Origin: Anaerolineae bacterium
Lineage (GTDB): Bacteria; Chloroflexota; Anaerolineae; DUEN01
DNA: 64,000 bases
Reading direction: 5' to 3'
Assembly: GCA_025060615.1 (NCBI GenBank)
Contig: JANXBS010000021.1
Coordinates: forward strand, 1 to 64,000
Made by a program: the position numbers and the translations under genes. Position 1 is the first letter of the stretch. Each line of letters opens with the position of its first letter. This document shows, in pieces, positions 38,846-40,309 of this stretch. Below the pieces are notes generated by a model that ran no database searches, was not told the origin of the DNA, and was given only the letters and a program-made list of their open reading frames with translations.

Positions 38846-38916
38846 TTGAATGCATAGTGGACAGTCGCCGTCTTCTACCATATTTTCCGTTGAACGCCGT
38901 TTCGAGAGGAACTTGC

Positions 38917-39969
38917 ATGTCCGCTCATGAGCAGATCCGCCTGACCAGCTTAGCTGCCTGTGCTGGTTGAGCGTCCAAAACGGCCCCAGAGGCCCTGGCG
39001 CACGTGCTGCGCCCACTAAAAGAGATGTTCCCCGCCACGGCTTATCCGGAGCTGCTGGTGGGCCTAAGCTCGGCGGATGACGCGGCCGTCTATCGCCTGA
39101 ACGAGAGCCAAGCTGTCATCCTGACGACCGACTTCTTCACGCCCATCGTGGACGACCCGTATGATTACGGGGCGATCGCCGCAGCCAACGCCATGGGCGA
39201 CGTCTACGCGATGGGGGGCGAGGTGCTCCTTGCCCTCAACATCGCCGCGTTCCCTAACGATCTGCCGGCCTCCATCATCGCCGAGATCATCCGCGGCGGC
39301 GCTGAAAAGGTGCGTGAGGCCGGCGGGGTGATCGCCGGTGGGCATACGATTCAAGACGCCGAGCCCAAATATGGGCTGGTCGTGATCGGCCTGGCGCGTC
39401 CTGACCAGATCATGATCAAGGGTGGGGCCAGGCCGGGCGATGTGCTGGTCCTCACCAAGCCGCTGGGAACGGGTGTGATCACCACCGCCCTGAAACGTGA
39501 CCTGGCCGACATCGATCACGTCGCAGTGGCTGTGGCGAGCATGAGTCGCCTCAATCGTGAGGCCGCGCGAGCTGCGCGTTCAGTCGGAGTGCGTGGCGCC
39601 ACTGATGTCACCGGCTTCGGGCTATTGGGGCATGCCGTCGAGATGGCGGAAGCCAGTTGTGTACGGTTACGGTTCGAGTACGGGAAGATCCCCTGGCTGC
39701 CGGGTGCTCACCAGTATGCTCAAGCGGGTTGCTTCCCCGGTGGCGCGCGCAGTAACCACCGGTACTTCAGCCGCCACGTAGACGTCGAAGTGGAGCTGAA
39801 AGAGCCGGGCCTGATGCTGCTCTACGATCCCCAGACATCAGGTGGGCTGCTCATCGCGGTGCCGGCCGCGCGCCTGGACGACCTGCTACACGAGTATGAG
39901 AGGCTGGGTCAGCCTGCCTGGGTCATCGGCCAGGTGATTGAGGGACAGGGCATCGAAATTACACCGTGA
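38917..39969 (+). CDS. selD: Selenide, water dikinase, predicted selenoprotein (UGA-Sec at residue 18)
   Basis: SelD makes selenophosphate from selenide and ATP. Reading from the ATG at 38917 (GAGAGGA upstream) gives MSAHEQIRLTSLAACAG, then UGA (38968-38970), then ASKTAPEALAHVLRPLKEMF and the standard SelD body: SSADDAAVY, ILTTDFFTPIVDDPYDYGAIAAANAMGD, GGHTIQDAEPKYGL, TDVTGFGLLGHA and DPQTSGGLLIA. The UGA sits exactly where SelD has its catalytic Cys or Sec, followed by the conserved Lys (here U-A-S-K; the usual second Cys is Ser). The protein would be 350 residues. An ORF from 39004 is missing the catalytic N-terminus. A SECIS-like hairpin follows the UGA. Confidence 0.88.
38968..39013 (+). 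promoter_or_regulatory. UGA selenocysteine codon with SECIS-like hairpin
   Basis: After the UGA (38968-38970), GGCGCA (38997-39002) pairs with TGCGCC (39008-39013) around the loop CGTGC. The loop begins 32 nt after the UGA and has G as its second base, matching the general bacterial SECIS pattern (small loop, G among the first two, 16-37 nt away). Confidence 0.6.
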
Positions 39970-40309
39970 TCACGGAGTCGGCGTTCCACATCGCGGTGAT
40001 GATATCGGCCATACCGCCCACGATGCCTACTTGCACTTGGTCAGTCAGGCCGAAATAGTTGAGGCAGGTCTGGCAGACGATAAGCCGGACCCCTTGCTGC
40101 TCCAACGCGCGGAGCTCTTCTAACACAGGCGATCCCCTGCAGACGAGCTTCACCCCGTCCGTATAGAAGCAGATCGCCCGTGGCAATTTCTGGGAATCGC
40201 TGAGGAGGCGGAGAAAGATGCCTGCTAGCTTTTCTTTCAATTCCTGAGCCTCGGTAATCCCAAGGCCATCGCTCTTAAACACGATCACGATGTCTTTGTC
40301 ATCTGGCAT
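39959..40309 (-). CDS. yedF: YedF-like selenium metabolism protein (DsrE fold)
   Basis: A 116-residue DsrE/DsrF-like protein. IVIVFKSDGLG begins the fold; RAICFYTDGVKLVCRGSPVLEELRALEQQGVRLIVCQTCLNYFGL carries the paired Cys, and VGIVGGMADIITAMWNADSVITV is the C-terminus. The TIGR-type family is tied to selenium use and found next to selD. It usually has a TusA-like N-terminal domain; here only the DsrE part exists. It converges on selD with 11 nt of overlap and has GGAGGAAACC before its ATG. A sulfur/selenium delivery role is inferred. Confidence 0.8.
   Translation of the reverse strand: MPDDKDIVIVFKSDGLGITEAQELKEKLAGIFLRLLSDSQKLPRAICFYTDGVKLVCRGSPVLEELRALEQQGVRLIVCQTCLNYFGLTDQVQVGIVGGMADIITAMWNADSVITV

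What the first reader, a model, noticed from the sequence alone, without database searches (positions are those of the whole stretch)
38917..39013. selD is a selenoprotein gene; UGA at codon 18 with a SECIS-like hairpin
Upstream of the apparent selD start, the same frame runs through a TGA to an ATG with a good ribosome site. The peptide around the TGA (SLAACAG-U-ASK) aligns with the SelD catalytic loop. A 6-bp stem with loop CGTGC begins its loop 32 nt after the UGA, with G at position 2. The usual second Cys after the catalytic residue is Ser, so the selenocysteine has no neighbouring thiol partner. An ordinary gene caller would truncate the protein and lose its catalytic residue.
Basis: partly seen in the sequence, partly recalled or inferred. 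Interest (0 to 1): 0.65.

Follow-up and report, generated by a model that had tools for sequence, protein, structure and literature searches.

The report
Selenocysteine-containing selenophosphate synthetase gene (selD)
The gene for the enzyme that activates selenium is itself read through a UGA 'stop' as selenocysteine; this is real and well supported here, but it is a well-known kind of selenoprotein, shared by most of this bacterium's phylum.

Summary
selD runs from ATG 38917 to stop 39967-39969, with an in-frame TGA at 38968-38970 (codon 18) at the catalytic position of SelD. The genome (Anaerolineae, Chloroflexota) has tRNA-Sec(UCA), selA and selB, a second selenoprotein gene (fdhA, in-frame TGA plus SECIS), and no other true selD. 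Ninety distinct Chloroflexota selD stretches carry TGA at this codon. The only sense codons found there are Cys, in orthologs where the hairpin is mostly lost. On energy alone the hairpin is unremarkable. Its comparative support is strong: it lies in the strongest run of synonymous constraint in the gene, it shows compensatory pair changes, and it meets all published bacterial SECIS limits. One claim is wrong: the selenocysteine does have a nearby thiol, Cys15, three residues upstream (CAGU, a CxxU arrangement, in 66 of 90 relatives). The Ser at +2 is ordinary, since Aquifex SelD also lacks that Cys. Sec-containing SelD is the second most widespread prokaryotic selenoprotein family, so this is a new member of a known kind. 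Low interest, high confidence.

The parts
38904..38909 (+). Shine-Dalgarno-like GAGAGG, about 7 nt before the ATG
   Evidence: read from the sequence
38917..39969 (+). selD, selenophosphate synthetase, 350 residues with Sec at 18; true start ATG 38917, stop TGA 39967-39969
   Evidence: TIGR00476 381 bits against a cut-off of 125; aligned over nearly its whole length to E. coli and A. aeolicus SelD structures 3u0o and 2yye
38968..38970 (+). UGA codon 18 = selenocysteine, catalytic position (E. coli Cys17)
   Evidence: alignment to 3u0o and 2yye; TGA at the same codon in 90 distinct relatives
38997..39013 (+). bacterial SECIS apical hairpin: stem GGCGCA/UGCGCC, loop CGUGC (39003-39007), 32 nt from the UGA
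   Evidence: synonymous constraint; compensatory pairs
38959..38961 (+). Cys15 codon, three residues before Sec18 (CxxU)
   Evidence: translation; present in 66 of 90 relatives
39959..40309 (-). convergent neighbour: DsrE-like C-terminal domain of the selenium-metabolism protein YedF, CxxC motif; overlaps the selD end by 11 nt
   Evidence: TIGR03527 99 bits, just under its cut-off of 110, profile positions 83-193 only

Best explanation
The gene encodes selenophosphate synthetase (SelD), itself a selenoprotein. The UGA at codon 18 is decoded as selenocysteine by tRNA-Sec(UCA) carried by SelB, which binds the hairpin whose loop lies 32-36 nt downstream. Sec18 sits on the flexible N-terminal Gly-rich loop of SelD, with the conserved Lys21, and takes part in making selenophosphate from selenide and ATP. 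That selenophosphate feeds SelA to make Sec-tRNA-Sec, so the only selD of the genome needs its own product for its own synthesis. Shown here by sequence: frame, homology, machinery, conservation of codon and hairpin. Inferred from the known family: SelB binding, Sec insertion, enzyme activity.
For: tRNA-Sec 76.5 bits, called tRNA-SeC with anticodon tca; selA 592 bits; selB 330 bits with both parts in one frame. A second selenoprotein in the genome, fdhA with in-frame TGA and a GGUCU-loop SECIS 18 nt on. selD family match. TGA at this codon in 53 of 56 class loci, against 2 TGT and 1 masked, and in most of the phylum sample. The SECIS codons are the most synonymously constrained 6-codon run of the gene: excess 0.31 against a mean of 0.035 and a window s.d. 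of 0.056. Compensatory pairs in the stem (G-C/A-U/C-G at several positions). None of the 8 Cys orthologs keeps an intact hairpin at the distal site and one keeps a decayed version. Published bacterial SECIS limits (PMC13188914: loop 3-9 nt, stem 4-16 bp, G in the first two loop positions, 16-37 nt spacing, MFE at or below -7.5) are all met. SelD is the second most widespread prokaryotic selenoprotein family (PMC13188914).
Against: No protein-level proof. The folding energy of the hairpin alone is at chance level, and the innermost pair of most relatives (position 7) is a C-C mismatch in the window, leaving a 5-nt loop. Against shuffles, only one of five covariation measures stood out clearly (cells with a change on both sides, 3/500), because the helix is so conserved. 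15 of 91 TGA-bearing relatives have no hairpin within the strict limits.
Confidence: 0.97

Rival explanations
1. The TGA is a sequencing or assembly error or a pseudogene mutation, and the real protein is a Cys-SelD or starts at GTG 39004.
For: A plain ORF caller gives the shorter frame; the window is from a draft genome in 73 contigs.
Against: The same codon is TGA in 90 distinct Chloroflexota sequences. Full Sec machinery is present. Starting at 39004 would lose the catalytic residue and Lys21, which are conserved in the SelD structures.
Confidence: 0.01
2. UGA is read as another amino acid (for example Cys or Trp by a suppressor tRNA with UCA anticodon) rather than as Sec.
For: Such tRNAs exist in some bacteria (own knowledge). 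I did not list every tRNA anticodon of the genome.
Against: A bona fide tRNA-Sec, SelA and SelB are present, and the hairpin fits a SECIS and is conserved at the nucleotide level, which general suppression would not need. selD itself ends in TGA.
Confidence: 0.01
3. The conserved hairpin does something other than SECIS function (for example translational control) and the true SECIS is the proximal GC-rich hairpin (GGCC-CCAGA-GGCC, loop about 15 nt after the UGA).
For: A proximal GC-rich hairpin is predicted in the window and in many relatives. Some lineages without the distal stem have a proximal hairpin with G in the loop (L103, L118, L119).
Against: In the window the proximal loop CCAGA has no G at positions 1-2 and is nearer than 16 nt. 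Its pairing is not kept (about 55% of cells against 89% for the distal helix), and its 5' arm shows no such synonymous constraint.
Confidence: 0.02

Closest known systems
Sec-containing bacterial SelD family (TIGR00476), for example Aquifex aeolicus SelD (PDB 2YYE, 2ZOD)
   Same: Same domain structure, catalytic Sec/Cys on the N-terminal loop with G-(U/C)-A-x-K, no Cys at +2 (GCAAK in the 2yye sequence; GUASK here).
   Different: Here Cys15 at -3 gives a CxxU arrangement; A. aeolicus has Ser there (RSSGCAAK).
E. coli SelD (PDB 3U0O), Cys type
   Same: Same fold and active-site alignment; C17 aligns with U18.
   Different: Cys instead of Sec; a second Cys at +2 (GCGCK) instead of at -3.
Bacterial SECIS element (bSECIS consensus; E. 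coli fdhF type)
   Same: Hairpin 16-37 nt after UGA, G (followed by U) in the first two loop positions; relatives have GCAGGU-n-CUGC, close to the fdhF loop region (own knowledge).
   Different: Nothing of note; spacing of 32 nt is at the longer end of the range.

Membership tests
Selenophosphate synthetase SelD (TIGR00476) | Profile match over the curated cut-off along the full length | tested here: met
   381 bits against 125, residues 8-317 on profile 1-308 of 311
[quoted passage not shown]
   U18 aligns with the catalytic Cys of 3u0o (GAGCGCK) and 2yye (SGCAAK); K21 conserved
Selenophosphate synthetase SelD (TIGR00476) | Makes selenophosphate from selenide and ATP | not testable with these tools
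   needs enzyme assay
Bacterial selenoprotein | In-frame UGA at a position that is Cys or Sec in homologs | tested here: met
   TGA in 90 distinct relatives, TGC/TGT in the rest that could be read
Bacterial selenoprotein | SECIS hairpin: loop 3-9 nt, stem 4 bp or more, G in loop position 1-2, spacing 16-37 nt, MFE at or below -7.5 | tested here: met
   loop 5, stem 6 bp, G at 2, spacing 32, -9.1 to -9.9 kcal/mol; limits from PMC13188914
Bacterial selenoprotein | selA, selB, selC in the genome | tested here: met
Bacterial selenoprotein | Sec physically present in the protein | not testable with these tools
   needs mass spectrometry or 75Se labelling

The most novel reading that the evidence does not exclude
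In Chloroflexota SelD the helper thiol has moved: Cys at -3 (CxxU) replaces the Cys at +2 of E. coli-type SelD, the two were never found together in 90 sequences, and the Cys-Sec pair forms a selenenylsulfide that holds or protects selenium during delivery to SelD.
Probability: 0.12. Interest if true: 0.4.

Novelty: new member of a known kind. Interest (0 to 1): 0.17.

Why it matters
It corrects the gene model: ordinary ORF calling loses the catalytic residue and 29 N-terminal residues. It also shows that Sec-SelD with a conserved distal SECIS is the normal state in this class. It does not change the understanding of selenium use, since Sec-containing SelD has been catalogued since at least 2006 (PMC1794560). 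The mildly useful extra is the CxxU motif and the apparent shift of the SECIS position between lineages.

Tried and rejected
Folding energy as proof of the SECIS: z = -0.31 for the hairpin, -1.9 for the 63-nt region, so it was not used as evidence. Proximal hairpin as a conserved second element: pairing not kept and two incompatible registers, rejected. First alignment A1 contained one row on the wrong strand and was replaced by A2. SelD as sole selenoprotein of the genome (a selfish loop): rejected, as fdhA also has a UGA with SECIS. selU/ybbB as another use of selenophosphate: not found, in line with PMC1794560, which reports no selenouridine trait in the Chloroflexi it surveyed. A literature search for Anaerolineae SelD gave nothing specific; PMC5736913 reports Sec-containing formate dehydrogenases in Chloroflexi.

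Full report
Observation. The window holds selD on the + strand. From ATG 38917, with GAGAGG about 7 nt upstream, the frame runs through a single TGA at 38968-38970 (codon 18) and ends at TGA 39967-39969. A standard ORF list starts the gene only at GTG 39004 (321 aa), losing residues 1-29. The peptide around the TGA is SLAACAG-U-ASK. The 6-bp hairpin GGCGCA-CGUGC-UGCGCC lies at 38997-39013 and its loop begins 32 nt after the UGA. All items in the finding are present at the given coordinates.

Chance. The hairpin by itself proves little. Its energy is ordinary against shuffles (z = -0.31), and 131 of 1919 TGAs in the window (6.8%) are followed by a hairpin within the same limits. The case rests on machinery and on comparison.

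Machinery. The genome (3.86 Mb, 97.8% complete; nearest named record an Anaerolineae MAG) has tRNA-Sec (Rfam 76.5 bits; ARAGORN tRNA-SeC, anticodon tca), selA (592 bits) and selB (330 bits). It has one true selD; the other two hits with the SelD protein are short and weak (28-29% identity), as expected of related proteins of the ThiL/HypE kind. A formate dehydrogenase gene on contig C3 (TGA at about C3:136619-136621) also has an in-frame UGA in the usual place (NVDNCARL-U-HSPTIAGL), followed 18 nt later by a hairpin with loop GGUCU. So SelD is not the only selenoprotein. selU was not found.

Homology. The protein matches TIGR00476 at 381 bits. It aligns over nearly its whole length with E. coli SelD (3u0o) and Aquifex aeolicus SelD (2yye), U18 falling on the catalytic Cys and K21 on the conserved Lys.

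Relatives. In 41 genomes of the family and class, nearly every full-length selD carries exactly one in-frame TGA, at the same codon. Among 56 distinct class loci, 53 have TGA, 2 TGT and 1 is masked. A phylum-wide sample shows the same: TGA in most, TGC/TGT in a few (L054, L081, L105, L112-L116), and no other sense codon.

SECIS. In 48 TGA-bearing genes the codons of the hairpin form the most synonymously constrained stretch of selD. The best 6-codon window has an excess identity of 0.31, against a mean of 0.035 and an s.d. of windows of 0.056; the Ala codon in the 5' arm is GCG in 41 of 48. In 90 distinct sequences the stem positions pair in 73-96% of cases and show exchanges such as G-C/A-U, G-C/C-G and C-G/A-U. 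On a 27-row alignment 89.4% of cells pair, against at most 60% for slid versions; cells with changes on both sides were matched by only 3 of 500 shuffles, while the other covariation measures are not significant. None of the 8 Cys orthologs keeps an intact hairpin at the distal site, and L105 has a decayed one. The published bacterial SECIS limits (PMC13188914) are all satisfied by the window's hairpin.

Correction. The +2 residue is indeed Ser, but Cys15 lies three residues before Sec18 (CAGU). Of 90 distinct relatives 66 have Cys at -3 only, 4 have Cys at +2 only, 20 have neither, none has both. Lack of a Cys at +2 is also seen in A. aeolicus (SGCAAK in the 2yye chain). Whether Cys15 acts with Sec18 is open.

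Verdict. This is a Sec-containing SelD with a normal bacterial SECIS. SelD is described as the second most widespread prokaryotic selenoprotein family (PMC13188914), and Sec-SelD with its Sec-to-Cys changes was described in 2006, together with remnant SECIS structures in Cys proteins of other selenoprotein families (PMC1794560). The result is solid but ordinary.

Noticed in passing
window 39959-40309 (-) and genome contig C18:36219-36422: YedF, normally one two-domain selenium-metabolism protein, appears split: the DsrE-like domain lies convergent to selD and a TusA/SirA-like part (profile 1-68) lies on another contig.
   Followed up: partly
L102, L103, L106, L110, L118-L124 (other Chloroflexota selD): Several Sec-SelD genes lack the distal hairpin; some have a proximal one instead (for example UAGGGC-CGGGU-GCCCUA, loop about 16-20 nt after the UGA; L103, L118, L119), which suggests that the SECIS changed position within the family.
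   Followed up: partly
window 38982-38994: A second GC-rich hairpin (GGCC-CCAGA-GGCC) lies between the UGA and the SECIS; predicted in many relatives but in shifting registers.
   Followed up: partly
L105 (G218): Cys-SelD (TGC) with CxxC (SCAGCAAK) and a decayed SECIS-like sequence GGCGCAAGUUUUACAGCC: looks like a recent Sec-to-Cys change.
   Followed up: no
L049 (genome C3, about 136619-136621): Formate dehydrogenase alpha gene with in-frame UGA and a GGUCU-loop SECIS: second selenoprotein of this genome.
   Followed up: partly
L028 (G004:C278): Two selD copies side by side on one contig, both with the UGA (the second runs off the contig end).
   Followed up: no
L054 (G051:C515): Cys-type SelD (GLGCACK) inside a 770-aa open frame, suggesting a fusion protein; the same genome also has a TGA-bearing selD.
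   Followed up: no
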